Shown here: positions 39,037-64,000 of the stretch, in pieces
How the letters are laid out: every line of letters starts with the position of its first letter
How positions within the stretch are numbered: the stretch's first letter is position 1
NCBI RefSeq assembly: GCF_024713945.1
Contig: NC_134683.1
Location: 4,837,501-4,901,500 of the forward strand
DNA: 64,000 nt
Direction of reading: 5' to 3'
Origin: Dermatophagoides farinae
Taxonomy: Eukaryota; Arthropoda; Arachnida; Sarcoptiformes; Pyroglyphidae
The notes under the pieces: model-generated
What the model saw: the letters and a program-made list of their open reading frames with translations, nothing else
Databases searched by the model: none
What the model was told of the DNA's origin: nothing
Made by a program: the position numbers and the translations under genes

Positions 39037-42000
39037 ATGAGCAACAGCAATGGTTGTTGTGAGCCGCCGGCCGCTTCTTCAACACCATCAACAACAACCA
39101 CAACCACGACAACAAAGACCGGCCATTATTATGATCAAAATGTTCGAAATAGATTTAGTAGCCATGCTGACCAACAACGATCACAATCATCCTCCGATTA
39201 TTTGTGTAAATTGGATGATCACCAAATCCAGACATCATCGTCATCATCACATCCACAGCCATGTATATCTATAGTATCAATCGATACTGGAAATGATGAT
39301 CATGAAATGTCTCCAATATCAACACCATCGATTTCAGCATCAATATTTGTCGATCATAACCATAATAATGATAATAGTAGTTGTTGTGCAATAGCAACAG
39401 CTAATACTCAACCACAACTATCATCGCCACAATCAATTATACATCATCATTATCATCGTACGACAGGTAGCAGTAATACAAGTAGTCCAAATTATCATCA
39501 CCAACGACGCCATCACCATTATCATCATCATCATCATCATGGCCGATGTTCACAGCAATCTTCCGATAATTCCTCATCACATTATCAACATCAACATCAT
39601 AATCAGAATGGCAATAATCAGCAACAGCAACAACAACAAACATCGACTGATCAACCATTTGGCCAATATACACCGGTTTGCCTCTATATATTTAAACAGG
39701 ATACATTTCCAAGAAATATTTGCCTTCGTATGATATCGAATCCATATCCTTTTCATTTGAATGAATTTCCGGTTTGATTGATGCTTAACTTGATTCAAAT
39801 TGTTCATGTTAAATTGGGTTGCGTGTTTCGCTGAATGCAAATCAAATTAGATTGCATTAGTCTTGTGCATTCTTTTTCTTTTATATAGTCGTGATAAATC
39901 TCTGATAATCCATTCTTTTCTGAATTGAGAGCAATTTGTTCCTTTCTCGGTTTGACATGCTGGTTTTGTTTAGAATTTTTTCCCATATTCAAATAAAAAG
40001 TACTTGAATGGGGTTTTTTTGCATCCATGTTTCTGTTTCTTAGAAACTTTATTGCATCAATTAAAAAGTTTTTTCTCCTCTTAGACCAGGATGATGATGG
40101 AAAAGAAATGGTGAAAGTTGGAAAGAAACCTCAAAACCAGACGACTTTGACCCTGACGTTTTTTTCGCATTTCATTTTTGTTAGTCGGACTTTGATTGAA
40201 CTGAATTTGATTCACATATCTTAATTTGTGTCCAACATGCCTCTGTATGTGTATGGTGTTGGTATTGGTGTTTGCATAAAGTATTTTCACATTATTTGCT
40301 TCAAAACATTGCAAGTTGTTTTGTATTCCTGTGTTTGTGTGTGTATGTTGAATTAGAATTGAAGTTTTACGTTTTCTGTTTCCTTTGGTGTGGGCAAACA
40401 TTGAATCATGTATAATTTTCTGTGATAAGGAATCTAATGAAATGAGATGGTGATATGTGCAAATAATTTATCCAAATCGATTTTGATTCATTTTTTCATT
40501 GTTGTCATCAAATGCATTCGATTCTGTTTTTTTTTTTTTTTTGATTTTCTTTCAAAAATGTTTTTTGTAAATTTAAACAAATCAACAACTGCATTATAAT
40601 AAAAGCCACAGATTGAAAGATTTAGGTTCTTGGTAAACACAAGATTCTTGAATTATCGCGTTTGCAGTATACTTGATTATGTTTTGTATGTAAAGATTCT
40701 TTTATGCATGCACTTGATCCGATTTGGATTTTTCTTTCAGATTATAAGACCAACTTGTCAAGACCAACAACAACAACAACAACTGCATGTTGGGCTGTAC
40801 AAATTTTTGTTTTGTTTGTTGCTGGTCCAATTCACACGCATTTATTGTGAATGAATGATAATTCCACTATGGTTGACTTGTCATTCTTTTCCGTTTGACA
40901 TTACTGACAATTATTCATGATGATGTGTTGATGATGAGCATGATGACATTATCAATCGAGTTTATGATGATGATGATGACGATGTTTTTTGGCCGAAAAA
41001 GATGAACTTGATTTGGGTGGTTAACATTTTTCTTTTATGTTGTTGTTGTCATCCACGATATGGCTTTCAGTTTGGTAGAATTTTTTTTTATTTTTCCCTT
41101 TTTCTGGTTCCCTTCTTTGTTTTCATGGTGTTTCCCCTTTTTTTGTCATTCAAGTGAAACTTAAATTCCAGGTGGACCATTCTTCACTTTAGATGTGTGT
41201 GTGTGGCATATAATAAATTGACTTTTTTTTCTAAACATTTTTGCTGCTTGATTTTCAGTAATGAACTAACCTGGTGAAAAGAGTATTTTTTTTTATGGTT
41301 TTTTTATGAAAAGAGTATGTTCCCTAGACTGGTAGATAGCAACGGTCCATGTTTTTTGATTATTGATTTTTCCTTTTCTCTTTGTTTCTTGATGTATACC
41401 TGAGACCATGTTCTCCTGTTTGCAATGACAACAATTTGGATGACAAGAATTTGGTCTGCATCGAATAGAATTCTTTTGTGAGCCCCAGTTCATTCGATAT
41501 AGACCACAGAAAAAATTTAAATTTTGCTTGGCTACAAAAGATAATTCGATTTAATTTCGATTTTATTATTTCAATTTATACAGGTGTGTGTGTGTGTGTG
41601 TGTTGCACAGTTTTTACTTCTTTATATTTTTTATTTTTAGATCCAAGAAAAAATGAACAAATTACCTTTTCATTGCTGTAGTCAGTTTTTTCTGTTACTA
41701 CCCTACAATTGAATTAGAATAAAAAGAATCCAAGCTATGGCATGTGTGTATGGTGGATGGAATTTTCTTTCCGATTGGTTATCCCCAGAAACCTTCTTCG
41801 TCCTGATGTTGAGTCATTTTATTTTATTCATTTATTTATTGTCCCAATCATTGGGCCATTATTATCATAGTGAGGTGAATTCACCAAAGTACTTATTTCA
41901 TAGTTTAATCGGCTACATTTTTTTTATTGTTCTGAATGTGTGGCAAGTGAATGTAACAGAAAACTTTTTTCCACTCATCACCATCACCACAGACAGATAT

Positions 42001-45000
42001 TGACGATGAGAGTGAAATTGTTTGAATTTTGCAAGTTTAGACAGATCCAGACTTTTCTCTTGTTGTTGCTATTTTGATGACAGGCTATTTTCGATAAATA
42101 AGAATTGAGAGTCATTGCGTCTCTAGTTTATTCAAAGTGTCTGTGTGTCTGTGGGTCTGTGTGTGTGTGTGTGTAAGTGTAATTTACATGTTGTATCATA
42201 AAACATGGATTCTATTCGATTCGATTTCCTAAAAATCTTTTTTCGATTGCCGTTGTTTGATTGTTCATTTGATCATGATTTCAGTCATTGACAAATGTAT
42301 AATTATCACTTTTTTCCAATATTCGAATCATAGACGATTGAACAAAAATTTTATTTACTCCATAGGGAGATCTGGTGCTCTTTTTGCATCACCATTAAAT
42401 GGCATAGTTTAAATTTAAATTTTTCTTATCTCTTCACTGTAAGTGAATTGGGATCATTACCGTTGTTCATCCATATATATAATATATGTATAGAGTGATG
42501 ATTAAGTGAGATTGCTGCATATATACAGTTGATGTTGTTGTTCATCGAATTCGAATCGGAAACACAACAAGATAAGGTAGTGGCCATAAGCAACAAAATT
42601 GGTCCGAAATTTACCTTTTTTTCGCTCTCTCTCTCTCTCTCTCTCTGTCCATTGTAATATCAGTTGATTTTTGTGTATGATCAGATTCTTATGGTTCCTG
42701 TGGACAGAGATCCATTTGAAACTCTATTGGGCAATAATAACAATAATGATAAATAGAGAGAAAGTCCTAGTCTGTATTAGTTTGTATGTATATGAATGAA
42801 TGGACATGATTGGCATAGTAAGTAACAACAATTTAATGTTCTGGCTTCATACACATTCGAATAATTCTTAATAATGACGATGATGATCTGAACCCCTATT
42901 CACTTGGACTATTTGAATTACGATTACGATATGCTATTTGTTGTTGTTGTTGTTGATTCTGGTAGCTTTTTTCGAATATCATTATGGTCACCTGATATTT
43001 CTATATGGTGATGATGACAAATGAAACAAAGTGTTTGGAATAATAAACCTCTTATAACATTGCAATAGTGAATGATGATAATGATAAAATGACATATACA
43101 TGTAGATATATTAATAGATTCAATGTGAATGTATAATGATTGACATAGAGTGCTCTTCACTCATCTATTTTTCATCAACATTTTAGTTTGATTAATTCAT
43201 TTGATGATGATTGGCAAGTCCATTTGGTTGAATAAACCAGCCATCAGTGATCAGGTATTATAATGATAAATATATTATACTTGCATTTGTTTAGATGTGA
43301 AAACATTCATTTGCCACCATTTTTTCTTAGAGAAAGAGAGAGAGAGTGAAAAAATCTGCTACTAATTATCTTGTTGATGTTATTCTATTCGGTCACTTTT
43401 TCAAGTGATTTATGACTTGAACTTTGTTCATTTTTCTTTCGCCTACACTTATTCAATTGGTCCAAGTTCTTGATCATTTGTAAAGAATTTAGCTTCGGAA
43501 AAAATGAGTGCAAAAGAAGAAAAGTGCGAATGACAAAATCTATGCAAGCTGACACCGCATTATCATTAGGCCTGTGAATTGAAATAGTTTAATCAAAGCA
43601 TAGGATTGATATTGATATTGAGCTTATCACTCTACATTCTGGTGCCAGGCATCGAATTCATTATTATTTCTGTGAAAAAGAACCATGTTCTTCATGATCA
43701 TTCTTTTTCAATTGTTCGATTCATACTGTTGATGATTCTCTTTATTCGAGTCGGTTCTTCATTCAATGTTTGCATGAATGTAACTAATTTTTTCCTTGTT
43801 GAAATTCTTGTTCAGGTTTTTCTTCAAATTCAAATGCCACTAATGAATGAACAGGAACATACAATCATCTATTGCTCAAATTACTTGAAATTTTACTTTC
43901 AAAAAAAATTTGTCTTCTCTCTTCTTCTCTCTTTTTTTCTCTTTTTTCTGTTTTTCGTTGTCATCATCATGCCAGTGTAAGTTGCACTCTAGAGATTTCT
44001 ATAACGGGTGATTTGAATTTGATAAAGTGAATGATGACAATATTCACTTGTTCATTTCATTTTCCGTAGCCTGAGAATTTGTTTTGTTTTGTTTTTTGTT
44101 GCAAAATTAGCCATACTCATCTTGATGACGATGATCACATCATCACTTGAATAATAGAAACAAACATTGCCATGCATTTGTTGACATGCCATGTTATTTT
44201 GATTTTAACGAGTAAAAAATGTCATTATCATTGTCGTTTGTTTGGTTTTTGTTTCAGTTTTTGTCTCATGTTCATGTGTGATTTATGTGAATCATATGCA
44301 TGTGTATGATTTGTCCATCATCATAGTGAAAATTGATTTTTAATGTTAATGTTTCCATCATCACCATCACCATCACCATCATCATACATTCATGGACATG
44401 GATATTTATTAATGAAATGATATAAAAACAGAACCAAAATGTGTGTGTGTGTGCGAGTCAACTATCTTATATTTCCGATGGGACTAAATCCTGGAAAAAA
44501 GAAATTTTTCTGTCCATAATTCATGAAATTGAGATGTTATGATGGTCGTTATTTTGTGGTTGCTTGTTTTTTCATTGCTGATTGTTGTGTTTGTATTAGT
44601 TTAGTTTAGTGTGCTTTATTATTATTATTATTGCTGGTTTTATGTTGCTGGTTAATTTATATTACAATGCAATGATGGTGATAATAACAAAAGTTGTTTC
44701 ATTTCTCGACATTCTGGCATGGATTTTTCAAAGTGAAAATTTCCATTCATTCAAGTTTAATTTCTGCATTCCTTTTCTACTTTCAATTGTGTCGGAATTT
44801 CGAATTTCAAAAAAAAAATAAAAAAAATAAAAGTCTGAATATCCAAACTATCATCATTTGGATCATTTGATACAAAACGGCGTGTCTGGCATATGAACAA
44901 TCGTTTCTATTTCAGTTGGTTTGAAAATTTTTTATTGTCATAAGAGTTTGATGGAAAAACCATTTAATGTTGCAATGTTTCTGCAATGGTTCGGTAGTGA

Positions 45001-48000
45001 TGATTGTCATTTCTATTGTCATTTTGTATCGATTGTGAATTTCATCCGACACTCACGAAAAGAATTCCATGAATTCTGAATTTTTTCTTGTCCTGCAGTT
45101 ATTCAATCATCAGTTATCAATATCGGTTTTTCCTTTTCTAAACATTTTGATTATGGTGGCCCAATAGTGTGCTGTGTAGTTAGCATCTGCACACACACCT
45201 GGTGTTGCATTGAACTATCTGTCATTATGATTGTTGTTGTTCGGGAATAATAATTAAACAAAAATAAAATAAAATTCAATTAAACTTTAGTTCCATCATC
45301 ATCATCACTACTGACAACTCTTTTGTTTTGTTTTGTTTAAATGTATAAACAACACAAGCCTTGAACTCTGTGTGTACAAGTGAAAATCTTGTTAATTTCT
45401 ATTTGCAACATTTATACTGGTAAAAAGTTAGCGTTTGTTTGTTGTTAATGTTTGATGAAATATTTATTTTGTTAACGTCGACGTCCAAATGATTTTCATT
45501 TCTCATTTCGCATATTTGTTTTGTTTCGCTTGTTTGAACATTTCTTATCAATTTCCACGTTTGTTGTTTCATTATTATCATGGTGCTGCTGGTGGTGGTG
45601 GTGGTGGTGGTTTCACTACAATCGTACAGCAGATGAGCGCTAATCTAGACCAAACTGTGAATGGCCCTACTTAGCCAATGTACTTTTGTTTAAATGTGCC
45701 GGAGATTTGATTTGTTTTGTTTTCATTTGTAACACACAGAATTCAATTGTCTTCAATGTCATTGCATGATATTCATCTCAATTTTGTTTGGCAAAAAATG
45801 AATTTTCACCTATAGCTAGAATGTGAGCTTCACTTTCATAAATCTCTCTCGTATGAGAATTGGAGCTTATTTTGTTGTTTCTAACCTTATATCTTGCTGT
45901 TTTTTTCCTTCTAATTCCCGATTCCAACAAATGTTGTTGTTCAGGTGAAAATTTCAATATTTTATCTACCATACAACGGTTTCGGTACGCTAGAAATATT
46001 GCTGAATGAATGAATTTATTATTATTCTCCTTTCTTTGCCTTGTAGACTTTTTTTTATTCAATTCTGTCCTAGCTACTGTTACTTTACAGTGGCCACAAT
46101 CACCTATTGTTTGTTTGTGTCACTGCCATCACCATGTGTTTAATTAAAGCTTTTAACATGCTCATGATGACGGTTTTTTCTTTAGTGACATGTATTAGTT
46201 GTTGTCAACGGTTTGTTCGTTTTTTTCCTTTTCTGAGTATATTTACTACATATGTAGATTTTGTACGATCAAAGAGTGAAGAAAAAGCAACTCGTTTACT
46301 TTGACCAGAAAAACAGTAATTAATTTATAATTACGGATCGAGTGGATGAGAAAAAGTTGATCGAACAAATTCATCGTCATTAGTTTTTGGTTGCAGATTT
46401 TGAATTGTGAATTCTGGGCCATTCTGGACCATTCTGGCAATATATGCAATATGCTTGTTATAGGCGTGACCGGCCATTTTTTCACTAGTTGTTGAACAAA
46501 ATGAATGAATTAATGTCTATACGTCTATACGTCTATATGTCTATTTTCATTTGACATTTAATTTTATTCAAACATTTGCCATAAATTAGAATGGATATTT
46601 TTCTTTTTCTTTCATCTATATTTATTGCTATTGCTATTGGGCTTTTTATATTTCTCCACATTTCTACGTGTTTCCACCGAGATAACGATTTTATTTCATC
46701 TTCAGATTTGTCGATGTCATTAAAAAAAAGAGTTCAAATGGTCTGGTTTTTTCAATTTTTTCCTTGAAATGACGATGAATTTTCAGTGTCACATATCATA
46801 ATGATAATGATGATGGAAAATTCGGTCAGAAAATTTCCGGCCATTGATGATGATCTCCCTCTCTGTGTGTCAGTAATATAATATTGATACCAATAACCGA
46901 ACCAAAGACATTATCATTATTATTATTATGACTGAAATGAACAAAAAATCCATCAACCAAATATTGATGATGATGATGATGTTTAGTTGATCAATTCGTT
47001 TTACTTTTTTTTCAAAAATTTTTCATGTTAGACATGTGGAAATGTGGACATTTTATCTCTGTGTTTGTGGAGCAGGATGTGTGAGTGTAAAGTTTGGAAG
47101 ATGAAAAAATTTTTCCATTTTTTTTTCTTATGGTTTTTCTTTGGCAATTTATTTTCATTTCATTGTCTGTCTCTGTATAATATCTCACTACCGGACTAGT
47201 TTTACACCACTGGTGGATGTGTGAGTTGTATGACTTTTTTTTCGAATGTTTGTGTGTGTGTGTGTAAAGGAAAAGTTTTTTTTCCTGTAGGTCGATAAGG
47301 TCCATTAGGTTTAGGGCAAGTCTTCTTTACCAACTGTTTGTGTTTGGCTTTGAAATAAATAGACAGGAAATCGAATCTGTTCTGTTAGTGCTGGTGAATG
47401 GATGCATTCTGATGATGATGTGGTTTCATTTCGTGTTTTTGTTTGAAAATTGACAAATTTTTCTCTCCATTCAATCTGGTTGAATAGGCCAAGAATCAAT
47501 GACTTGAATCTGATGAGGATTTATTCATCGATATTGATTAGGTTATTCCATTAAGTTTGGCATGATTGACATTTTTGTCCTTTAAACTTTTCAATCAGTG
47601 GATGGTCTTTATATTCTTCATATGCATGCATTTTATGTTGATGTTTATAAATAATTTGATCGATGATTCAATCAATCATTGCTTCACCTATGTTCACCTG
47701 TGTTACATGTTTTGTTGCACTGAGCATTGAACTGATTAGAAACTATCTGAAATTGAATCACTTTATAATTATTGTGTGTTTTTCTTCATTGAAATGAATG
47801 AACATTCCATTTGGTGTGATGGAATTTCCATTATCCCTGGATTCTCGATTGATCGATGTTTATTGATGTGACAAAAAAAGTTCCATGTGTGAAATAATGA
47901 AAGTTCGATTAAGAATTTTTTTCAATTTTCTTTGGCCATTGTCACTGTCATAAATGATGAATGATTGAAATTGAATGGAACAATGTTTTTGATTGAAATT

Positions 48001-50471
48001 GAATTGCTTGCAGTAATTCTCAAATTTCCAAATTCAAAACGATGACACTTTTTTCCTCAACTTAAACCTTGGGTTCCTTTCCTTTTTTTTCTTTTTTTCC
48101 TTTTTTTGCTGGAAAATGAATTTCCCTTTCTCAACAAACAACACATGGTTCGAGCGCATAAGTATGATGGCTATACTATTGAATTGTGTTACATTGGGCA
48201 TGTATCAACCGTGTGCAGATGATGAGACCTGTACAACATCACGATGTAAAATATTGCAAACATTCGATGACATAATATTTGGTTTTTTTGCCCTTGAAAT
48301 GGTCATTAAAATGCTGGCCATGGGCATAATGAATGCACCCAATTCATACCTATCGGACACTTGGAATCGATTAGATTTTTTCATTGTTGTTGCCGGGTAT
48401 GTATTAATCGTCTTTCATTTGTTCAATAATCACCATTATCATCTTTATTCGTTTGAACAGAGCTCTTGAGTATTGTCTGGATGTTGGCAATATGAATCTA
48501 TCGGCTATCCGTACAGTACGAGTATTACGGCCATTACGAGCAATCAACCGAATACCAAGTAAGTAAAGTAAAGTGAACAACAACTCACTAGTGGTTGATG
48601 ATGATGGTGGTTAATTATTCAATAATCCAATGACAGTAATGAAGCTACTTTTGTTCAGATTTCCATTTCATTCTGTCGCATACAAGTTGATTGGTTTTTT
48701 TTGGTTTTGGTTTTTTGTTTCATGTGTGTGTAAATTAATATGATATGACAAAAGAATGGCCGTTGTTTGTTCTATTCATTTTGCTAATTGATATTGATCT
48801 CGTATTCTCATTTTTCAACAGGCATGCGAATATTGGTCATGTTGTTATTGGACACTTTACCGGTAATTATTAATATTTTGTTTCGCTCATCGATGATTGA
48901 TTCAAGTTTTAATTTTTCCCAAACAACTAATGATCAGATGCTTGGCAATGTGTTGTTGCTTTGTTTTTTCGTCTTTTTCATCTTTGGCATCATTGGTGTG
49001 CAATTATGGGCCGGTCTATTACGACAACGTTGTTTTCTATCGCTACCACCAAATACATCCATACCCGATAGGTAAGCATTTTGGTTTCTCTATTTATTTT
49101 CACATGAAAGGATTCCAGTAACAGATATGCTACCCTTTTTCAGATTTATCGATTCATCCAACAGTGGGTTTTTGTTGTTAGATTTTCTCAACCACACACA
49201 CCATGAGTCAAAATGGCCTGGTGAATGAAATGTCTTTATATCAGGATATAGGATTCTCATATTTTTGTCTGATTTCTCCATTTTTCGGTGCAAGAAGTAT
49301 ATGATTCAGATGCGCTGATATGAGTGTAGTGCGAATTTATTCATGCGATAAAAAATTTGTAAGAAACGATGAAAGATGAAACCCGATCCTGTTGAAAGAT
49401 AAAACTCCACTCGGTTGGAATTTTTCCTTTCATTCACAGGTTTTTCATTTTCATTTCACAGTGCCAGTGATACCTCGGTTATCGATGACAGGTCGTTACC
49501 TCAAACGATATCATCGGTTACCGAGGTACCATTGTACTGAATTTCTCTGTCATGCAGAATGGAAATTGTGCTATAGTCATGACAATGATCATTGAAATTG
49601 AATTCAATCGAGGCCGAAAAGCCATTCATCTCATCATCGGTCATCATGATGATCATAATTTGAAAAGCGAAATCAATTGAGCCGAAACGATAAAAATAAC
49701 AGTTTTTCTCTTTTTCACTTTCTTCATTACTATAATACATGTTGGCCCCACTTAATATAATGACCCGGAAAAAATATAAAAATATCCAACTACCTCCTAC
49801 GGCCCGACACAAACAACTCATTCATTTGTTTGGCCCAAAAAAATCATAATCGGAAAAAATATTCGATCCGTAATCACCATCAGGCCAGATCATCATATTG
49901 GGCAAATTTTTATGACTAAAAAACGTCTTATATAGTAAGAAATGTCGATCCAACCCTTAATGAGCTTCTTTTTTTTGTTGAACCCAAGCCAATCTGCTTG
50001 CTTATTACAAACAAGATGCTTAAGCAAAAATTATTGCCAATAATGATGACGGATGTCATATGAATTGTTTCTTTGAGAAACGGAATTTTTCTCTCAGAAC
50101 ACTGCATAAGCTTCTCTTTCATTCTGATGAGACCTGATTACAGAATTTTTAGGTGAATTTTTTCGGGTATTATTATTAGGATAATAGTTTCTTTGTGTTA
50201 AAATATTCTTTGCCTTGAACGAAAATGATGATTAATCAACTCACACACACACACACACTGGCATATTGTTTGTAGCATTATGGTATTATGTAATCGTTTA
50301 AGTTTGCCATAAATTATCCAATCTGGTTGCAAGTATGAAGAAAACCTTGAAAAAATATATACATTCATATGCGATGGCCTAGGATCAACACGACAAAAGA
50401 ATCGATGATAGAGTAGAGTAGAGTAGAGAATGGTTCTTAGGTGAAACAAACTTATGAACGTCATAGACATC

Positions 50472-50513
<42 letters not shown>

Positions 50514-53500
50514 GCCGAATAAATGGCTGTCATTTATGTGTGTGTTTGTGTTGTCGTTTTTGTTGTTTTCTTTTATGCTCCAATCTCTAATGGTTTCTTG
50601 GGAAAAGAGAAAGAATTATTATCGCTGTAATGTTATTCTTTTTGTTTAGACTTTCATTAATTGTTTTTCGTTTACTTAACTTTTGTTGCTGTTTGGTCAT
50701 TATGCCATGGCTGCGGATTTAACCCTTTGTTATAGATTTGAATATTGAAATTGATAATTGTTCATTGTTCATTGTTCATTATTACTGCAGTTCAATATCG
50801 GCATTTTATCAAGATGAGGATGGGGATAAAGATTACATATGCAGCATGGAGAAAGACAATGGAGTGCATCGTTGTAATAATCTGCCTAAATCGCGTTATT
50901 ATCATCTATTGTGTTCGGAAAATGCCTTACCAATGCCCGAAACAAATGAACCGAACGATAGTAGTTGTGTTGATTGGAATCAATACTACACTGATTGCCG
51001 TCCGGGTGATCATAATCCGTTCCAGGATGCCGTCAGTTTCGATAATGTCGGCATGGCATGGATTGCCATTTTTCTAGTCATATCATTAGAAGGATGGTCC
51101 GACATAATGTATTATGTACAGGATGCTCATTCCTTTTGGTCGTGGATCTATTTTGTTCTCCTCATTGTGGTATGTATTATTCTACACTTGATCGTTTGCC
51201 CACAACCAAATTGAAAATGGTCTTGATCTTGAATTAGATTGGATCCTTTTTCATGATCAATCTTTGCCTTGTCGTTATTGCTACGCAATTTTCCGAAACA
51301 AAGAAACGTGAAATGGAGCGTATGCGTCAGGAACGAGCTAGGTGAGTCAGATTCATCATTCATTCGATTCAATAATTTATTTATCACCATCATCATCGGA
51401 CAGATGTCAGTCACTAAATTCGTTGGCCAGTTTTAGCCTAAATGAACAGCTTAATTGTTATGGTGCAATCATACAATATTTATCATACTTGGCCAGAAAA
51501 ATATGGCGCAACACATCACGTTGGTATCTAAAACGTTATGGTCGTAAAAAACACCGTTTCAAATCCAATCAACATCCACATTCACATCATTATCACATGA
51601 ATATCAACCAGACAGTTTGTTGCCATTGCAATAGTGGTGCCATTATTACGAAAAATTTATCACCACAACTATCCATTCGACAACCACAACCACAGCCCCA
51701 ACAACAACAACAACAGCAGCAGCAGCAGCATTCAGTGAATAAACAAATTGATGTTGACCATGAAAGTAGTGATCATGGTGTCGTTATTGTCAGCAGTGGT
51801 GGTCGTAAAAAATCCTCGACAACATCAACATCGAATACGAATGGTAGCCAAATACAAATGAGTAATGTGCCTAATACCAATGTGAATCCATTGATGATTG
51901 GCAATAGTGATATTGTTGTGGTTGATTGTCAATCAATAATCAATGATAACAATCTTGTTGAATCATCAAATGCAGCTGCCAATGATTTGGTTGTCATCAC
52001 ACCACCGCCAGAAACGACGAAAACAATAAAGTCAAAAATTAAGAATACAAATCGATCGAAAAATGGCGGCAAAATGCGTAAACGTTCCACTAGTAGTAGT
52101 ACTAGTAAACAATCGACTACGAGTCCAACAACAAAATCCTCATCATCAGCCATTCTCAATGACAACGATGTCGATATGATGATGATCATTCATCGTGATG
52201 ATGGCGATGATAACGACAGTACAGCCATGATCAAACGTGATCATCGTCGTGGTTCGGTACCGAATCTTTATCATCACGGTAATGGTCACCGAAACCAAAC
52301 AAATCATCATCGTTATCATCATATGGCATCACAGTTATCGTCATCACATGCCACTTCTGAATTTCATGATGCTTGTCGTCGATCGCCTTGTAAATGTCAA
52401 CACTATCAACATTCACATCATCATCATCATTCACATCAGCATCAGCATCATTATCACCATCGTAATCGGAACAAGAAAGAAATGGATCGATCCAGCTGTT
52501 CAAGTGTATTGAGTACGAATCGTAATCGTTATGCACGTCGTGCATCATCAATGATATCTGTGGGTTCATGTCGTCGTTGCTGTCCAAAGGCCTGTACACG
52601 ACCCTTATGTCAAACATGGAAACGTATTCGTCGAATATTGCAGAACATTGTGAAACATAATTATTTCCAACAAGCAATTTTTCTTGCCATTCTGCTGAAT
52701 ACGTTTTCAATGGGTATCGAATACCACAATCAACCGGAATCATTGTCGCATGCGGTTGAAATAAGCAACATTATATTCACCATCGTATTCTGTATCGAAA
52801 TGGTGCTCAAATTATTGGCCGACGGTTTCTACGAATACATCAAAAGCGGTTTCAATGTATTTGATGGTTGTATTGTCATCCTTTCACTGCTCGAATTGCT
52901 TGAAGAACATGGTTCTGGCCTATCCGTATTGCGTACGTTTCGTTTGCTGAGAATTCTGAAACTTGTACGTTTTATGCCTGCATTACGGCGACAATTGGTC
53001 ATCATGTTACGTACGATCGATAATGTGGCCGTATTTTTTGCCTTGCTCATGTTATTCATCTTTATATTCAGGTTTGTTCACTTGAGTGTATAGTTTAGTT
53101 TAATAAATAAATAAAAACAAAAATAAAAATTCAATTCCCATTGCAGCATACTTGGCATGAATCTGTTTGGTTGTAAATTCTGTGACCGTAATCCAATCGA
53201 TCAAACATTAGAATGTGATAGGAAAAATTTCGATTCACTGCTATGGGCATTGGTCACCGTATTTCAGGTAGGTGACTTTACAGCCAATATATCATTGCTG
53301 TACATTAATCATTTTAAGCCCTTTTTTCGGGTGAATTTATAAAAATCATTCCCGTTTAGCGATTGGCAATTTTTTTCGTTAGCATATTCAACCGAGTCAG
53401 TCACATAAACACACAGTTAATGTCTAAAGTTGACGTGGAAATTTTCCTACATGAATGGCTAGTTGGTTGGTCATAATATTTATCAATTTTTCATGTTCAA

Positions 53501-55358
53501 TCGAAAAACAAACCGGTGAAGCAATGCGTCAGTGTGTGTGTGTGGAGGGGTTTTATTTTCCTCTTGATTTGAATAAAACTACAAATATCAAAGAGGGGAT
53601 TGTTTGCTGATTCATTTTTTATAATTAACAATTAGAGTCAAACTTTTTTTTTAAATAAATCCTGCGACTTGCTTTGTGTGTGTCGACATGAAACAATCAT
53701 TTGTTATGTGCATGAATTATCCATCCATTCATTGTGATTGTGTTGACATTTCTTTATAGTTAGCTGTGAAAATTTATGAATGATTGCCGAGAAATAATGA
53801 GTTTATGTGAATGAATGAAAAATTATTCTTTAACAAAAATTCTTTGTTCTGCTCGTTGATCGTGCAGTTAAATTTCAGTCTATTACCACTGTGCAACAAA
53901 ATAAACATAAACAAGCCTGAGGTTTGTGTCTTTTCAGATGTTCTCGGTATTGTTGGGTCTAATCTTTCTGTATGATCGATATTCTTTTGTATTTGTCGAT
54001 GAATTTTCAATTTTTTTTCTCTCACTGAATCGACCAAAAGGTGAAAACGATTAGAAATAAACTGTGTGTGTGTGTGTGTCTATTAGCCTTATTATTATTT
54101 AACATTTTTTCCTTCTTCTGCTTTTTTGTGATTGGTGTGCACTATTCTCAGATACCCTGCTGCTGCTGCTGGTGATTTTCCCAATGAATTTTACTTTTTT
54201 TCTCTCCACGTTTTGCTATTTAGTTCGCAAATAGCTTCAGTAACTGGATTCTTATTTTGTTTGTGCAATGATAGTGTGATAAGAGTGCCAAAAGTGTTTG
54301 GAAAACGGAATTTTACATGCAGACAATTAAGACCTGAATCCGATAAAAAATTTTTCAATACAACATTGTATGATGCAAAAAAATGCTGCCTATTTCTCCC
54401 TCAAGGGCTTGAATTGGAATCATATAATATCTGGATGGATGTAAGGGATTCAAATGAATCGAATGAATACGTTGCATTCATTCATCGCTCGACAATTCTC
54501 CGGTTTTTTTTCCATGCGACCGAAACAAAATGAAACCCTTATAAATAACAAAGAAAAATATCAATGAAGGAAATCTGCTCGAATCACATTCACTAACAAT
54601 ATGCTTAGCTAAGCATCTTTTTGTTGGTGATTTCTTACCCGATTTCTGATTTTTTCGAATCGAATCACAAGAGCCACTAAAAAATGTTGCATTGAATCGA
54701 ATGAAATGAATGGTAAATATTGGAGCGAAAGAAGAATTTTTATTTGATTCTTTCTCCCACACACACACACACACACTTATATATTTCTATTTCTATTTAT
54801 ATAGAATAAACTGTCGTTAATGAATCTCATTTACTTGCGAAATGATGATATTGGATGAATTGATTTGAAAATTGAAAAGATTCAAGTGAAATAAATGACA
54901 TTAATAATGATTATTTTCTTCATACTTGATCATTGTCGTTCATCGATTCTCTCTTGGGCCCATCATCAATTGCATACTGATCCAGTGCAATTGCTGACAG
55001 TTTTAGTTTTAATTCAGTTTTTTAGTTTGTTTCCCTTTTCATTCAATTATAAATGCCATGATGATCATCGTCGTCGTCGTCAGTTGGTCTGTTGGTCTAT
55101 TGGTTGTGTGAATAATAATTGAAAAGATTTGCCTCGTACATCAATCCACATTCGAACGAATTGATGATGGCAAATCAAAATCGATCGGTCATGCATAATT
55201 TTACACAAGAATAACTTGATGACAAACAAACAAGAGACAAGTTTGTGGTCAATAAACAAAACTGAACAGCCAGAATAAAAAAATCGATAATTTGATCCTT
55301 GCTTTTACATTCACAATCCTCATCATCATAATCATCTGGTCTATTGTTTTCCACGTAT

Positions 55359-55418
<60 letters not shown>

Positions 55419-58400
55419 ACTTGCTACCGCCAATTATCTCCGTTTACAAACAAACAAAAAGAAAAGGAAAGGGATTTGTTTTTGAATTCAGAATTTGTTG
55501 CTTGCTGTATTGTGGACTGATGATACCCCCTATTTATATAATGGCCATAATTCAACAAACACGACGACGATGATGATGAAAAAGAAATTACATAGAACAA
55601 CAATGAAACTGAAACAATATGCAATCACATCAGATGCTTTGTAGTTGTTGTTGTTTAGATAATGATAATAATAATAATAATCGAGACATAAGCAGCAATC
55701 TCGATTTGTTTGTTTGTTTTTTCCTTTTTTTCTTTTTCTTTTATTCGTGATGGTGATCATGATCCCGAAACATTGTGGGCGTTGCACATGTTTAAATGAA
55801 TAAACATTACTTTCTATGTTGTGTGTGTGTTTTGATTTTTGTTTTGTTGTTTTGTTGTTGTTGTTTTTAATGTTTGTTGTTATTATTCTATAACGATCTT
55901 CATTGATGATGGAAATTAGATGATGATGAAACTAGATCCAGATGAATGGTCCATTTGCATTCTTTACATGGGCTTATTGAATTACTTAAGAATTACTCGG
56001 GAAATTCAATTTAATTTTCTGGTTCTTATTGAGAATCAAAACTTTTATAGAGAAAATGGCCAATTTTCAAATCATCTCTCAAGGTCCAGGTTGCTTTTCA
56101 AACACAAACTTGAGACCAAATTGTGTTGTTGTTGTTGTTGTTGTTATTTATAATCGATTCTTTGTACAAAAATAGATACTGACCCAAGAAGATTGGAATG
56201 TCGTACTATTCAACGGTATGGAACGTGCATCACCATATGCTGCCCTTTATTTTGTCGCTTTAATGACATTCGGGAATTATGTCCTATTCAATCTTCTGGT
56301 CGCCATTCTCGTTGAAGGTTTCAGTCAGGAGGTAATGTTTAATGTAATGTTTACTTTTGATTGCTTTTCTCATCTGACCCACTAATCTTTAGGACGAATT
56401 GAAACGATCGATATCAAGTTCAAACGATAAAGTCGAACAAATCAAACAGGAACGTTTAATTTATTTCTATAGCCACAATGATGACCTGGAGAGAGGTAAG
56501 TGTTTAGTAAACACTGTTTACTTGATGATGATTATTATTATTATCATTGTGGCTAGAAATCCAAACACTTGAGAACCCACCAAATCGTATTGATGATCTA
56601 TTGGTTTATCATGCGAAAAAAAGTCTTTCAAATCAAGGTTCTTCCATTGGCATGAATCGAAATCCATCCACATCGGTCACTGCTGCAAATAATGATTTAA
56701 TCAATACTAATGATGAAAAAATTTTGCCCGAAATATCGATCGGTACGATAGCCACATCATCATCGACAAATGTTGGAAATAAGAATGTTGTACGAATTAG
56801 TCATGATCATGATACAGCAGCAGCAATGCCAACACCGACTGGACTGATTCCACCACCATTGATTACACGTACAGCAGCTACACCACAAGGATCACCACCG
56901 ACAAGTATTAGTGATGGATTTTTCCCACCATTTCCATCATCAATTCCAACGATGATTAAATCACCAACCACACCGATTGATATGATGGTGGTCGATCCAT
57001 CATCGTCATCATCCTCATCATCATCACCATCATCTCTATTAATCGATGATCAACAACAACAACAACATCATCAATCAATGGTAAGAACTATTTTTCGCAA
57101 TACATAACTGAACATGAAATGAATTGTTTACATCAAACATAGCTTATCGTTAGCTATAAAGATGGTGAATCCCATTCGCCCACAACATCGGTACTGCCAA
57201 CCCAGTCGATGCTTTCACCAAGTCATTCGATTGGATTCCAGCCACCACCACCACCACCATCGGTCGATATTTCGTCATCAGTTTCATGTGATGGTCGTAT
57301 GAGGTCTGGATCTGTCAAAAATGTATTGGGATTTGGTAATCTGCAGATTATTCGCAGCAAAAGTCATGATGGAAACAATGAGGAATCAATGAAACGGCCG
57401 AAAACAATTCGACAACTTTCGACCACCGTCTACAGCAGTTCTGTTCATCAACATGGCTTTCCATTACGTAAAGAGCTTAGTTGTAATCAAATCAAAAATC
57501 TTGGCCTGGATTCTGAACAATCGACAATGATAGTGAAACCGGTGACAAAACGTCCCGTAACGGCTAAACAACGTCGGAAAAGTTTCTTTCAATTTCGTCA
57601 ACGTTCATCACAGGGATCCATGACGAACGATCAGAAAAATATAGCTTCATCTACTAGTATTGTGGGAGAAGATTCTTTCTGTCCAATTTATGCCAAAAAG
57701 AATATCGTATTACGACGAAAAAGTTTGGCTGCCGATTTGTTGTTACGTTCAAAATCGGTTGCACATGATGATTATTATTATGGTGATTATGGTGATCCCG
57801 GTGATAATGATGAGAAGTCATCAAAACAACAGCAATCGATGAGATCGGATAGTCATCATCATCCATCCATATCGATATCATCAAATATGTCAACCGATGG
57901 TGATCATCGTAAAAATAGTTTAATACATGAAGTTCGTGTGCTTAGCCCAAGAAATTCATTGAAAGGAGTATTCTATTCGTCCAGTGTCATTTCGATTCGT
58001 AATTCAAATTCAAATGAACTATATGGTGGTGGTGGTGGTGGTGGTGCCTGCTTTTATGAAATGCTTACGTTGGGCAAAAAATCTGATAGTTTTGTTGTGA
58101 ATCAGCCGTCATCATCTATCACAGCAGCAGCAACAGCAATAGAAACCGAAACAGCCCAAGCAACGACAACAACAAAAGCATCTGAATTGAATGAAAAAAT
58201 ACAAAAATTCTGCATCTATTTCAAATGGACTTCGTGGATGACAGTACGGGAAGAATATTCACTGTTCATATTTTCGCCAACAAATCGTTTCCGTCGTTAT
58301 TGTGTTTGGCTTGCTGATCATCCTTATTTTGATTACATTGTTCTCATATTCATTTCCATGAATTGCATAACGTTGGCAATGGAACGGCCCAAAATTCCTC

Positions 58401-61400
58401 CGCATAGTAAGGAACGCGAATTCCTTACCATTGCCAATTTCGTCTTTACACTCGTATTCGGCATTGAAATGTTGATAAAAGTGATTGCGAAAGGCTTATT
58501 CTATGGCCAGAATGCCTATTTCCATAATGGCTGGAATATAATGGACGGTTCATTGGTCGGTATATCATTGTTTGATATATTTCTTTCGTTTTTTGCTCAA
58601 CGTAGTCCACGTATATTTGGTATACTTCGCGTATTTCGTTTACTACGATCATTACGGCCATTACGGTATTTTTAATCTGATCATCATTTTCATTATTTGA
58701 TTGATTTTCTTTCCATTACATGAATAGTGTCATTAATCGTGCGCCGGGATTGAAATTGGTTGTCCAAACATTGTTATCATCACTGCGTCCTATCGGAAAC
58801 ATAGTGCTCATTTGTTGTACATTTTTCATCATATTCGGCATACTTGGCGTTCAGGTACATATGTTATCACTGGTCGACAACAATCCCTTCCCATCCCATC
58901 TTATCTGAAACTGACAAAAACAATTTCTTTTTCTTTTTCTTTTTCATTTCCAAACTAAATTTTCATCATTCAGCTATTCAAAGGAAGCTTTTATTATTGT
59001 GGTAAGTGATTTCATTGTCATCCTGTTTTTCTCATTTCATGTATGTTGGTTTTCTCCATTTTCTCCATTTTCTCCATTTTCTCCATTTTCTTCATTTTCT
59101 CCATTCTCTCAATAATAATAACAACAACCCGATGACAATAATTGTATGAATACGAACAGACGGGCCTAAAGCGAAACACGTTCGTAACAAGACTGAATGT
59201 CTTTCCGATCCGCGTAACACATGGATCAATAGAAAGTATAATTTCGACAACCTAGGTCAGGTAATTTTAATTTGCCTTCCAGTCCATTTAAGATTTGTTT
59301 ATTTATTTTCTTTTTTTTTCATTTCAACATTGGTTCATCGTCTGTTTTTGTCATCTTATTGTTACTACACAAATGGATTCGTGTTTTTTAATTGTTGTAA
59401 AATGGAACTAATAGGCACTAATGTCATTGTTTGTATTATCATCGAAAGACGGATGGGTAAACATCATGTACACCGGACTAGATGCAGTCGGCGTGGATCA
59501 ACAACCAATCGAGAATTATAACGAATGGCGTCTATTGTATTTCATTTCGTTCCTGTTATTGGTTGCCTTTTTTGTTCTCAACATGTTTGTCGGTGTTGTT
59601 GTCGAGAATTTTCACCGATGCCGCCAGGAACAAGAACAAGAGGAAAAGGCATTTCGAGCGATGAAACGTGCCCAAAAAATGGAAAAACGACGTAAAAGTA
59701 AGAAAACTAGTACAGTGGATACAGTATCGTGTGTGTGTATCGTCTTGAGTCTTGAGCCATTATATTCTCATTATTCTCATTAATTATAATTGATTGACTC
59801 GAATCGGATCAGATCGAATCACAGTCGACAAACGGTACCCATGGGTGATGGTGGTGGTGGTTCATGATCATCAATTTAATAACACTTGCCCCTCATTTAT
59901 TCATTTGATTCATAATGAGCAAAACACACTGGATCGATTCTAATGTTGTATATATCTTATATCTTATCTTATTTATCTATTGATGAATAGAAATGCGTGA
60001 ACCACCGTATTTTATTGGCTATGGACGATTCCGTCTAAACATTCATCGCATTGTGACGGGCAAATATTTTGATCTGGTAATAGCATTGGTGATCGGATTG
60101 AATGTTATCACGATGTCTCTGGAACATTATATGATGCCTATGGTATGTTTTGTTTTGTTTTGATTGACATGCCCATTTCAATTCCATTTCATTCTCTCCT
60201 ATTCACATTTACTTGTCGTGGCTAAATATTTGTTAGGAGCTGGTATATGCATTGAAACTATTCAATTTCATTTTCACCACTGTGTTCATTGTTGAAGCAA
60301 CAATGAAAGCGGTTGCATTAGGTTTACGACGATATCTAAAGGATAAATGGAATCAATTGGATGTCATCATTGTCTCATTGTCGATAATGGGCATCATATT
60401 GGAAGAAATGGAATCCACCCTCATACCGATCAATCCGACCATCATACGTGTTATGCGTGTGGCTAGAATTGCTCGTGTGCTCAAACTATTGAAAATGGCC
60501 AAAGGAATACGACAATTATTGGATACGGTGATGCAGGCATTGCCGCAAGTGGGCAATCTAGGCCTCTTGTTTTTTCTATTATTTTTCATATTTGCTGCAC
60601 TTGGTACCGAATTATTTGGCCGTTTAGGTGAGTGCTGGTGACTGAGTGTTTTTAATTTTTCGTTTTTTAATTCCACTGTTTTCATTACATTAGAATGTGA
60701 TGAAGAACATCCATGTCAAGGTCTTGGGGAACATGCTCATTTCCAGAATTTCGGTATGGCATTCTTGACATTGTTTCGTGTGGCCACCGGCGATAACTGG
60801 AATGGCATCATGAAGGTATCTGTACAGATGAATGGTGATTGTTTGTCGAAATTGATTGTTTTCATTATGACAGGATACGTTACGTGATAAATGTGATTCA
60901 TCCAGTGATTGTTTACGAAATTGCTGCATTTCGCCGGTAATTGCACCACTTTATTTTGTCGTATTCGTATTGATGGCGCAATTCGTATTGGTCAATGTTG
61001 TGGTTGCTGTACTGATGAAACATCTGGAAGAATCACACCATCAAATGGATGAAGATGAAGATTTTGAAATTGACCAGGAAATTGCTCGTGAAATTGAAGC
61101 CGAACGTCGTGCGTTGGCTGAAGCAATCGAACGACGACAACGGGAGAAAAATCTCAAAGTACGACGTCCACTGCTGAAAATGGCGTCCTTGCCATCGAAT
61201 TTTACGTTCACATTCGCTGGCCCAGTAACACCGTTAACACCGCCATATGTAATAAACACTGAACAAAACAAACAAAACCCAAATTCAAAGAATCGTTCGT
61301 TGAGGAAAAAAAAGAAACCATTTCATCATCATCATCATAATTCATCAATATCGTTGAATGATGAACCACCAAAATCGGCGACCATCCTAAACAGTGGTGG

Positions 61401-62293
61401 CAATTATTTCAATTTTCCATGCCAACAATCAAGCGGATAAACTGACGAAATTGAATGGAATTTTGAAAAAATCACATAGCCTCAGAGTGGCTAAAACAGC
61501 AGCAGATCGATATCGAATACAAACGAATAGTAATCATAATTGTGGTGAACAAAAAGCTTTGCTAGTCAAAATGGCCAAATTCGATCATGATGATGAGAAT
61601 GGGGTAGGAAATTGCGATCGTTATTGGCCCAGTTCGAGATCAATGACGGACAATTTTAATTACCATTACTGTTCGTTGAATAAATCATCTAATGCCATAG
61701 ATGAACCATCACGATCATTGCAATTATCAAATGATAATGATGATTTTCAGTCGTCTCGAATCATTGATTTGACTGATCATCATCATCATCATCATCATGA
61801 ACAATCATCAATCATGCAAAGTCCACCCGTTATGATCAAGATTGACGACTATTATCGGGCAAGCAATGATGATGATAAAAATCAAACGAATCGAATTAAA
61901 TGCAATGAAAATTCGATTCATCAAAAATCGGAAATTGTGATCGATCATGCTAGTGGTAGTGGTGGTGGTGGTGGTGGCCTACATCATCTTGGTGGTGATT
62001 TACTGACCACCACGGTTGCAACAACGACGATTGCATCGCCATCTAGAAATGTTTCAACAAAATATCGGAAATTGAGTGACTTTCTTGATGAAGAATCCGG
62101 TCCATTAAGTCCGGCATTGTTTGGCACATATCCTGAATTGTTCAATTCAGATGCAGCCAATACCTACAATGATTACAATGAAGATGACGATCTCAATGAA
62201 GATGATGATCAGCAACCGAAACGGAACAATGAGGAAAATACAAGTCTTGCCTCGATTGAAAGTTGGCCATCCGGCGATCCTGAAGATGATTGA
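39037..62293 (+). CDS. Ca-alpha1T / CACNA1G-like: T-type voltage-gated calcium channel alpha1 subunit (Cav3)
   Basis: About 22 coding exons, about 2800 aa: 39037-39743, 48145-48396, 48461-48558, 48822-48862, 48938-49071, 50791-51169, 51238-51341, 51404-53071, 53147-53267, 56176-56331, 56393-56495, 56557-57080, 57143-58665, 58728-58854, 58974-59001, 59160-59260, 59415-59697, 59991-60142, 60237-60627, 60694-60815, 60874-61393 and 61434-62293. The last junction is uncertain. It has four six-helix repeats with voltage sensors ([60 protein letters not shown]). The pore filter is [32 protein letters not shown]. This is diagnostic of T-type channels. The I-II linker begins with the Cav3 gating-brake-like segment ([16 protein letters not shown]) and is followed by a long His/Ser/Gln-rich stretch. 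The protein is a low-voltage-activated plasma membrane Ca channel. The N-terminal 230 residues are low complexity. Confidence 0.95.
39744..48144 (+). other. First coding intron of Cav3: U12-type AT-AC intron
   Basis: The preceding exon ends in codons for CLRMISN plus CC, and the next exon supplies A then TGGTTCGAGCGC. Joining 39743 to 48145 gives NPWFERIS, the highly conserved Cav3 entry to segment IS1. The intron begins ATATCCTTTT and ends ACAACAC. This is an AT-AC boundary with a perfect U12 donor. A branch-like TTTCTCAAC lies at 48127-48135, with its last A 10 nt before the end. No GT-AG alternative keeps the frame and motif. The 8.4 kb inside holds simple repeats and short low-complexity open frames, and no gene is seen. 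Confidence 0.85.
48863..48937 (+). other. In-frame 75-nt intron in the IS4-S5 region of Cav3
   Basis: Donor CCG|GTAATT and acceptor GATCAG bracket 75 nt that contain no stop and are a multiple of three. Removing it joins LLLDTLP to [11 protein letters not shown], the conserved Cav3 order. Retention would insert 25 residues between the S4-S5 linker and S5. Confidence 0.8.
49459..49539 (+). ncRNA. Candidate pre-miRNA-like hairpin in a Cav3 intron
   Basis: The left arm 49459-49490 pairs with the right arm 49509-49539 around an 18-nt loop. The pairing gives roughly 26 Watson-Crick pairs and two wobbles, with four single mismatches and one bulge. The longest unbroken helix joins TACCTCGGT (49471-49479) to ACCGAGGTA (49520-49528). 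Length, loop and mismatch pattern fit a microRNA precursor in the sense orientation of the host gene. It does not match a microRNA I recognise. A small inverted-repeat element is the alternative. Confidence 0.45.
50474..50511. repeat. (TG)n microsatellite in a Cav3 intron
   Basis: An uninterrupted TG run of about 38 nt. Confidence 0.95.
54601..54616. repeat. Perfect 16-bp palindrome
   Basis: ATGCTTAGCTAAGCAT is identical to its own reverse complement. It lies in a Cav3 intron and no function is assigned. Confidence 0.8.
55364..55416. repeat. (TC)n microsatellite in a Cav3 intron
   Basis: An uninterrupted TC/CT run of about 53 nt, the longest dinucleotide tract in the window. Confidence 0.95.
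59052..59107. repeat. TTCTCCATTT 10-bp tandem repeat in a Cav3 intron
   Basis: About five slightly degenerate copies of a 10-nt unit fill the middle of the intron 59002-59159, providing a long pyrimidine-rich tract. Confidence 0.85.
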
Positions 62294-62828: not shown

Positions 62829-64000
62829 TCTAGTGGTTATCACATGATTGAACAACTGGAACTAGAACAGGAATCGACACCGATATTCAAGATGATGTCA
62901 GTAAAATCAATACGGGCATTACGTTTATTGATGCCAATGGTTGCCATGATATCACTGCTCACACAATCGGTTGCAATCATAACCAACGATTGGCTACATA
63001 CGATCGAATCGATGCCCAATACGAATTATGAGAAATTCTCAATGCCAGCTGAAATGGAATTTTTCAAAAAATCTACATCATCTGGCCTATGGACATTGTG
63101 CTACAATGAACGTGAGTTTTGCAAGAAAAATATGTTGATGACGATTATTTCATTTCATTCATTTCGTAAACACTCATAGCACCGGATACAGAACTTGAAT
63201 GCAAGAAAATTGATTACTTGAGCCAAGAAGAGTATATACCAGATCAGAACGATTCGACAATGGCCATTCCATGTAAATATATGATATGATTGATTTTCTA
63301 TTTCTATTCTTACCTTTACATCATGTTCCTGTTTCAGACGCTGTAAAGCAAGCGGCCATTTATTTTCTAGTCAGTACCGGTCTAATGATAGCTGGACAGA
63401 CAATTTATCTAATGAGTCAGTTGTGTCGTTCACGTCGTATCTATATATTCGTATCGGGTATACCATTCATATTGTCCGGTAAGTGGATGATAAATGATTC
63501 ACTCTCAATGAATGAACATGATCATGGATTGTCCTGCTTCTGTTATTTCTGTTGTGTTAGGTCTATTAATATTGACTGGCATTGTGGTCTATATATCGAC
63601 ATTCAAAAATGAAGTTGGCTATAAACTACGGCCAATTTCACAATTCCAAGATGCACTATTCGACTATCGTTACGGTTATTCATTCCTATTTCTCGTCACG
63701 AGTCTATTATTATCCGAACTGACCGGCACATTGGCCATATTTCTGTATGTTTCACAAAAACATTTCAAAATTATGATCGACACTGAACGCGATCAAGTTC
63801 TTACACACAATATCATCAATTTGCTCCGAAACCAACAACAGGAACAAAAAATGGTAGACGATGACGACGACGATGACCACCACGTTAGAAACAAAGATGG
63901 TGTTGTTTCCAGTTATCCAAGACTAGGAGTCATATCGAGTAGCGATAATGATCAAGGTTATCACATGAATGATGGCGATGCAGCCGATGTAACAGTGACA
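62829..64000 (+). CDS. CACNG-like (stg1-like): Voltage-dependent calcium channel gamma subunit / TARP-like protein (partial)
   Basis: Exons 62829-63111, 63180-63272, 63338-63478 and 63561 to beyond the window end. The first usable ATG is at 62844 (MIEQLEL); an upstream coding exon cannot be excluded. The four-helix claudin-like fold is visible: TM1 LLMPMVAMISLLTQSVAIIT, an extracellular loop with the family motif SGLWTLC and a second Cys in ELECKKIDYL, then DSTMAIPYAVKQAAIYFLV (TM2), FVSGIPFILSGLLILTGIVVYIS (TM3), and YGYSFLFLVTSLLLSELTGTLAIFLYV (TM4). DSTxAIPYAV and the Cys spacing are typical of stargazin-type gamma subunits. These regulate AMPA-type receptors and calcium channels at the plasma membrane. 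The cytosolic tail (Asp/His-rich) continues past 64000. Confidence 0.92.

What the first reader, a model, noticed from the sequence alone, without database searches (positions are those of the whole stretch)
39744..48144. U12-type AT-AC intron of 8.4 kb at the IS1 boundary of a Cav3 calcium channel gene
The intron starts with ATATCCTTTT, a perfect match to the minor-spliceosome donor consensus. It ends in AC, with a branch-like TTTCTCAAC ending 9 nt upstream. Using it restores the conserved NPWFERIS with exact phase. No GT-AG choice does so, because no AG occurs between the poly-pyrimidine tract and the conserved codons. AT-AC introns are a known feature of voltage-gated Na and Ca channel genes. 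Finding one retained in a compact, short-intron genome implies a working minor spliceosome. All other Cav3 introns here are GT-AG, so this one appears selectively kept. It is also by far the longest intron in the window.
Basis: partly seen in the sequence, partly recalled or inferred. Interest (0 to 1): 0.75.

Follow-up and report, generated by a model that had tools for sequence, protein, structure and literature searches.

The report
Rare-class intron in mite calcium-channel gene
A dust-mite calcium-channel gene carries one very long intron of the rare kind removed by a second, minor splicing machine; introns of this kind are already known from such channel genes in other animals, mites among them, and the mite genome still holds at least part of the RNA machinery for it.

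Summary
Window 39744-48144 is an 8,401-bp AT-AC intron at the IS1 boundary of a T-type (Cav3) calcium-channel gene, by its assembly that of the house dust mite Dermatophagoides farinae. The donor ATATCCTTTT equals the U12 consensus and occurs once in 64 kb, both strands. Splicing there gives LRMISNP|WFERIS, which aligns without a gap to solved human Cav3 sequences. Of 25 GT donors and 32 AG acceptors tested, 8 pairs keep a frame and none keeps WFERIS. The other 19 introns of the model are GT-AG. The branch-site match (7 of 9) is weak alone. The genome carries U6atac and U11 above, and U4atac below, Rfam's cut-off; U4atac and U6atac share 13 perfectly complementary bases, and U11 and U6atac pair far better with this donor than with the gene's other 19. 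U12 snRNA was not found, and minor-spliceosome proteins and Cav/Nav paralogues could not be searched because the genome server stopped answering. The intron is no surprise: published work describes a U12 intron at D1S1 of almost all Cav/Nav genes, and Aculops and Tetranychus mites keep a U12 intron one in a calcium-channel gene. New member of a known kind.

The parts
39037..39743 (+). Coding exon 1 of the Cav3 gene (ATG 39037; His/Gln/Ser-rich N-terminus, ends LRMISN + CC)
   Evidence: Translation; alignment of its end to human Cav3
39744..48144 (+). U12-type AT-AC intron 1, 8,401 bp, phase 2
39744..39753 (+). U12-type 5' splice site ATATCCTTTT
   Evidence: Only RTATCCTTT in the window, both strands; pairs with mite U6atac at -11.5 and with U11 at -9.7 kcal/mol, the 19 other donors at best -3.4 and -2.8
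48127..48135 (+). Probable U12 branch site TTTCTCAAC (branch A 48133 or 48134)
   Evidence: 7 of 9 to consensus, 9 nt from exon; weak alone, 4.8% of ACs score as well
48143..48144 (+). 3' splice site AC
48145..48396 (+). Coding exon 2, from IS1 on ([22 protein letters not shown]...)
48461..61440 (+). Coding exons 3-21 of the Cav3 gene with the introns between them, all GT-AG; the 3' end of the last exon is uncertain
48116..48118 (+). In-frame ATG inside the intron end ([16 protein letters not shown]); possible but unsupported alternative start

Best explanation
The stretch is an ancient U12-type AT-AC intron, the D1S1 intron of voltage-gated calcium and sodium channel genes, kept in the Cav3 gene of Dermatophagoides farinae. 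In the pre-mRNA, U11 binds the donor (CCTTTTC with GAAAAGG), U12 is expected to bind the branch site, then U4atac/U6atac joins, U6atac replaces U11 on the donor (TCCTTTTCA with TGAAAAGGA), and the intron is removed to join codon CC|A (Pro) in LRMISNPWFERIS. Shown: the sequence elements, the frame, the lack of a GT-AG pair that keeps WFERIS, and the presence of U11, U6atac and a U4atac-like gene with matching pairing. Inferred: that the intron is actually spliced, that U12 snRNA and the proteins exist, and that the intron is the same one by descent as the D1S1 intron of other animals. The order of the splicing steps is textbook knowledge, not tested here.
For: Donor equals the U12 consensus ATATCCTTT as given in PMC6259924 and is unique in 64 kb. 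The joined protein aligns across the junction without a gap to solved T-type channels (6kzp alpha-1G E 3.4e-60; alpha-1I and alpha-1H likewise). None of the 8 in-frame GT-AG pairs (25 donors by 32 acceptors) keeps WFERIS. Genome: U6atac 60.7 bits (gathering 33), U11 45.7 and then 51.8 bits (gathering 39), U4atac 45.7 bits, below its gathering 53. U4atac/U6atac share a 13-nt perfect complement; U6atac differs from the Rfam consensus at 4 of 17 positions there; duplex energies are mite/mite -27.8, consensus/consensus -24.6, mite U6 with consensus U4 -22.0, consensus U6 with mite U4 -11.5 kcal/mol. U6atac and U11 pair with this donor at -11.5 and -9.7; the 19 GT donors reach at best -3.4 and -2.8; 12 of 20,000 random 14-mers do as well with both. 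Published: D1S1 U12 intron in almost all Cav/Nav genes; AT-AC U12 intron one in a calcium-channel gene of Aculops, RNA-seq supported, with a U12 orthologue in Tetranychus.
Against: U12 snRNA was not found in five searches; the Rfam search scored 42 of 5,722 candidates, and its 14 controls rang in 0 at E 0.001 and in 7 at E 10, none over the cut-off, so absence is not shown. U4atac is below its curated cut-off. The wider U4atac/U6atac duplex is not beyond all shuffles (-36.6; mean -20.8, sd 4.0, lowest of 500 -38.9). The branch site is imperfect and pairs poorly with the recalled consensus U12 loop (-2.8 against -9.5 kcal/mol for the consensus branch site). No transcript data were available.
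Confidence: 0.95

Rival explanations
1. The intron has AT-AC ends but is removed by the major (U2) spliceosome, as reported for AT-AC intron 21 of the sodium-channel gene SCN4A.
For: AT-AC U2-type introns exist in sodium-channel genes (PMC2831892 passages). The acceptor has a pyrimidine-rich tract at about 48070-48108.
Against: Those introns all have G at +5 (PMC2831892); here +5 is C. The donor pairs with the mite's own U11 and U6atac.
Confidence: 0.03
2. Exon 1 and exon 2 are not joined: transcription starts inside the intron and the channel begins at ATG 48116.
For: The frame is open from 48017 and ATG 48116 is in frame.
Against: Exon 1 encodes a segment before IS1 that aligns to human Cav3 ([22 protein letters not shown]), and the U12 donor sits at exactly the base that keeps the frame.
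Confidence: 0.01
3. A GT-AG intron joins the two sides, for instance GT 39772 or GT 39676 with AG 48154, perhaps with a small extra exon between.
For: 8 GT-AG pairs keep an open frame; GT 39772 with AG 48154 keeps exon 1 whole and puts read-through residues ending PFHLNEFP before RISMM.
Against: All 8 lose WFE of the conserved NPWFERIS; acceptors up to 48013 meet the in-frame TAA at 48014 whatever lies upstream.
Confidence: 0.01

Closest known systems
D1S1 U12-type (AT-AC) intron of Cav1, Cav2, Cav3, Nav1 and Nav2 genes (PMC6259924, passages)
   Same: Place in domain I segment 1, AT-AC ends, donor consensus ATATCCTTT
   Different: Imperfect branch site TTTCTCAAC against TTCCTTRAC; 8.4 kb long where the other introns of this gene are 58-2,908 bp. 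The exact column of the published junction could not be compared, because figures are not held
U12 intron one of calcium-channel gene aculy03g00270 of Aculops lycopersici, and its Tetranychus urticae orthologue (PMC7738191, passages)
   Same: U12 intron one of a mite calcium-channel gene; in Aculops AT-AC, very long (12.5 kb) and supported by RNA-seq
   Different: The passage does not say that the gene is Cav3, nor the end dinucleotides in Tetranychus; in Aculops this intron was the only evidence of a minor spliceosome, whereas here U11, U6atac and a U4atac-like gene are seen as well
Drosophila Ca-alphaT-RC AT-AC U12 intron (PMC2831892 table)
   Same: T-type channel gene, AT-AC U12 type
   Different: Listed as fly intron 1 and human intron 23, so it may be another position

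Membership tests
U12-type AT-AC intron | Donor RTATCCTTT | tested here: met
   ATATCCTTTT at 39744, the only RTATCCTTT in 64 kb, both strands
U12-type AT-AC intron | Branch site TTCCTTRAC some 10-20 nt before the exon (spacing recalled) | tested here: inconclusive
   TTTCTCAAC, 7 of 9, branch A 10-11 nt before the exon; as good in 318 of 6,692 ACs of the window
U12-type AT-AC intron | Terminal AT and AC that keep the reading frame | tested here: met
U12-type AT-AC intron | U11 and U6atac snRNAs in the same genome | tested here: met
   Both above their gathering scores
U12-type AT-AC intron | U4atac snRNA in the same genome | tested here: inconclusive
   45.7 bits, E 3.1e-5, under gathering 53; backed by a 13-nt perfect complement to U6atac
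U12-type AT-AC intron | U12 snRNA in the same genome | tested here: inconclusive
   Not found; no U12 hit in Rfam scans of 2 of 2 and 20 of 32 pattern matches
U12-type AT-AC intron | Minor-spliceosome proteins (RNPC3, ZRSR2, PDCD7 and others) | not tested
   The one attempt, PF16021, did not complete
U12-type AT-AC intron | Removal in cells | not testable with these tools
   No transcript reads available
Cav3 T-type channel | Closest relatives are alpha-1G, H, I | tested here: met
   Domain I: 2.8e-210 to 6kzp, best outside Cav3 2e-85
Cav3 T-type channel | Selectivity filter E-E-D-D (motif recalled) | tested here: met
   Model reads SLEGWSD, TQEDWNV, SKDGWVN, TGDNWNG in domains I-IV (reading is mine)
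Conserved D1S1 intron of Cav/Nav | Same column and phase as other animals | tested here: inconclusive
   Same segment (IS1) as described in PMC6259924; exact column not compared, no animal relatives at hand

The most novel reading that the evidence does not exclude
This intron is one of the last few U12 introns of the dust mite, and its minor snRNAs have drifted to fit it: U6atac reads TGAAAAGGA, the exact complement of donor +4 to +12 (TCCTTTTCA), and U12 would have changed its branch-binding loop towards GTGAGAAA to fit TTTCTCAAC, which would also explain why consensus searches miss U12. The minor spliceosome would then be kept for a handful of genes, a T-type channel among them.
Probability: 0.12. 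Interest if true: 0.65.

Novelty: new member of a known kind. Interest (0 to 1): 0.3.

Why it matters
Mites are among the animals poorest in minor introns, and complete loss is reported for two of them (PMC10639083 passages). Another mite that keeps an AT-AC intron one in a calcium-channel gene, together with U11, U6atac and a U4atac-like gene, helps make the question 'how few introns can keep a second spliceosome alive' testable in a small genome, and fits the idea that the channel intron is among the hardest to lose. It also warns gene predictors: a GT-AG-only model would lose or misjoin the N-terminus of the channel.

Tried and rejected
U12 snRNA: Rfam RF00007 at E 0.001 and at E 10, a 24-mer of the conserved 5' part with up to 3 mismatches (0 matches, control 0), TGCCTTN{5,15}GTAAGGA (2 matches, 6 for the reversed control; no U12 hit in Rfam scans of both), TATGAGTAAGGANAA with 1 mismatch (32 matches, 45 for the reversed control, so chance). 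Of these 32, 30 had loci and were looked at with a search for an Sm-like site (5 of 30 have one: L009, L019, L020, L029, L030), and 20 were scanned with Rfam, L009, L020 and L030 among them, with no U12 hit. L019, L029, 8 further loci and the 2 matches without a locus were not scanned.

Rfam on the whole window gave nothing at gathering scores, so no known RNA family was seen in the intron. Tandem repeats in the intron are four short arrays. I considered and rejected a GT-AG junction, a U2-type AT-AC intron and a start inside the intron, as given under rivals.

The shared element upstream of the three snRNA genes ([AC]CNGTAA at -65, -61, -63) was chosen after looking, so I use it only as support; 4.4% of 30,000 random 120-mers have it anywhere and 0.3% at -66 to -60.

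Not done because the genome machine did not answer: Cav1/Cav2/Nav paralogues (PF00520), PDCD7 (PF16021), a U12 pattern for a changed loop.

Papers: passages only of PMC10639083, PMC7738191, PMC6259924, PMC2831892, PMC8487952, PMC11074847, PMC11039992; others only as search listings. Wu and Krainer 1999 and the Tetranychus genome paper are not held. That I found no paper on U12 introns in Dermatophagoides rests (5 papers, all listed) and (2,675 papers, 12 listed), so it is weak.

Full report
What the window is. It lies at contig C7:4837501-4901500 of a 62,435,336-base assembly in 22 contigs. Contig C4 is 7,117,990 bases long, exactly the scaffold N50 printed for the last assembly (...024713945.1) in a table of PMC11074847, which gives 62,428,314 bases in 21 scaffolds. 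I take the organism to be the house dust mite Dermatophagoides farinae; the 7,022-base, one-sequence difference is unexplained.

The observation. The donor ATATCCTTTT holds the only RTATCCTTT in 64 kb on either strand. The acceptor side is weaker: the branch-like TTTCTCAAC matches 7 of 9 consensus positions, and 318 of 6,692 AC dinucleotides do at least as well. The weight therefore rests on the donor and the frame.

The gene. From open frames I built 21 exons, 39037-61440, giving 2,526 aa. Twenty introns: one AT-AC (8,401 bp) and 19 GT-AG (58 to 2,908 bp). The last exon may be longer or spliced; an open frame 61391-62290 suggests more C-terminus. Domain I matches solved T-type channels best (alpha-1G 2.8e-210; best outside Cav3 2e-85). 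The pore residues E, E, D, D mark Cav3 (recalled motif, read). Across the junction, [15 protein letters not shown] aligns to CLRTVCNPWFERISM of alpha-1G without a gap.

GT-AG alternatives. I paired all 25 GT donors in the open frame of exon 1 (39037 to its stop at 39775) with all 32 AG acceptors in 47001-48200. Eight pairs stay open and in frame, all with acceptors inside the exon (48154 or 48162), and none keeps WFERIS. The last AG before the exon, at 48013, is followed at once by TAA in the WFERIS frame, so no acceptor at or before it can enter that frame, whatever exon lies upstream. An in-frame ATG at 48116 leaves a start inside the intron formally open.

The machine that would remove it. 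Of the four minor snRNAs, three gave a covariance-model match in the whole genome: U6atac 60.7 bits, U11 45.7 and in a smaller search 51.8 bits, U4atac 45.7 bits, below its gathering score of 53. They lie on contigs C4 (U6atac) and C7 (U11, U4atac), outside the window. U4atac and U6atac have 13 perfectly complementary bases. Against the Rfam consensus, U6atac has four changes in 17 positions there; mite with mite pairs at -27.8, consensus with consensus at -24.6, mite U6atac with consensus U4atac at -22.0 and consensus U6atac with mite U4atac at -11.5 kcal/mol. This looks like matched change in two separate genes, though only one of the two mixed pairs is much weaker. Over the whole 5' parts the duplex energy is -36.6 against a shuffle mean of -20.8, sd 4.0, with at least one of 500 shuffles as low as -38.9. 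All three genes have [AC]CNGTAA at -61 to -65, a candidate promoter element chosen after the fact.

Donor recognition. The mite's U6atac and U11 5' ends pair with this donor at -11.5 and -9.7 kcal/mol. The other 19 donors of the gene reach at best -3.4 and -2.8. Of 20,000 random 14-mers of the window, 43 do as well with U6atac, 144 with U11 and 12 with both.

What is missing. U12 snRNA was not found by five searches. The Rfam search scored 42 of 5,722 candidates, and the controls named in its answer are prokaryotes, which should not have U12, so this is not evidence of absence. The branch site pairs weakly with the recalled U12 loop. Minor-spliceosome proteins and the Cav1, Cav2 and Nav paralogues were not searched: from then on the genome machine answered nothing.

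Comparison with what is known. [quoted passage not shown] PMC7738191 (passages) reports for the russet mite Aculops one canonical U12 intron, AT-AC, 12.5 kb, intron one of a calcium-channel gene, with RNA-seq support, and its orthologue among three U12 introns of Tetranychus. The same paper gives a median intron of 75 bp in D. pteronyssinus. PMC10639083 (passages) calls Acari generally very poor in minor introns, with apparent complete loss in two mites. So the present intron is a new member of a known kind. What I add is the exact junction in D. farinae and the pairing of the mite's own U4atac, U6atac, U11 and donor.

The bold reading. The 9-nt match TGAAAAGGA/TCCTTTTCA could mean that the snRNAs have fitted themselves to few remaining introns. 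But the Rfam consensus already reads UGAAAGGA, so the mite differs by one added A, and the number of U12 introns in this genome is unknown. I give it 0.12.

Noticed in passing
window about 62840-64000, + strand: The gene directly downstream of Cav3 encodes a calcium-channel gamma/TARP-like protein (gamma-7 structure 9s41 E 7.8e-15; claudin families; the piece joins two exons by eye). I recall that human Cav3 and CACNG genes share chromosomes, so this may be an ancient linkage; not tested.
   Followed up: partly
L001 1501-1607, L002 1501-1630, L003 1501-1706 (minus strand): Three minor snRNA genes share [AC]CNGTAA at -61 to -65, a candidate snRNA promoter element of this mite.
   Followed up: partly
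L003 1501-1706: The U11 match spans 206 nt, against 134 model positions, with long insertions.
   Followed up: no
window 6108-31785: Gene-dense stretch: ribosomal protein L4, a TAF9-like TFIID subunit (minus strand), a RecQ-like helicase, a metalloenzyme-family fragment that looks like phosphoglycerate mutase, a TAF5-like WD40 protein, a protein with two GNAT acetyltransferase matches, PGAP1 and a mitochondrial carrier (some names are mine).
   Followed up: no
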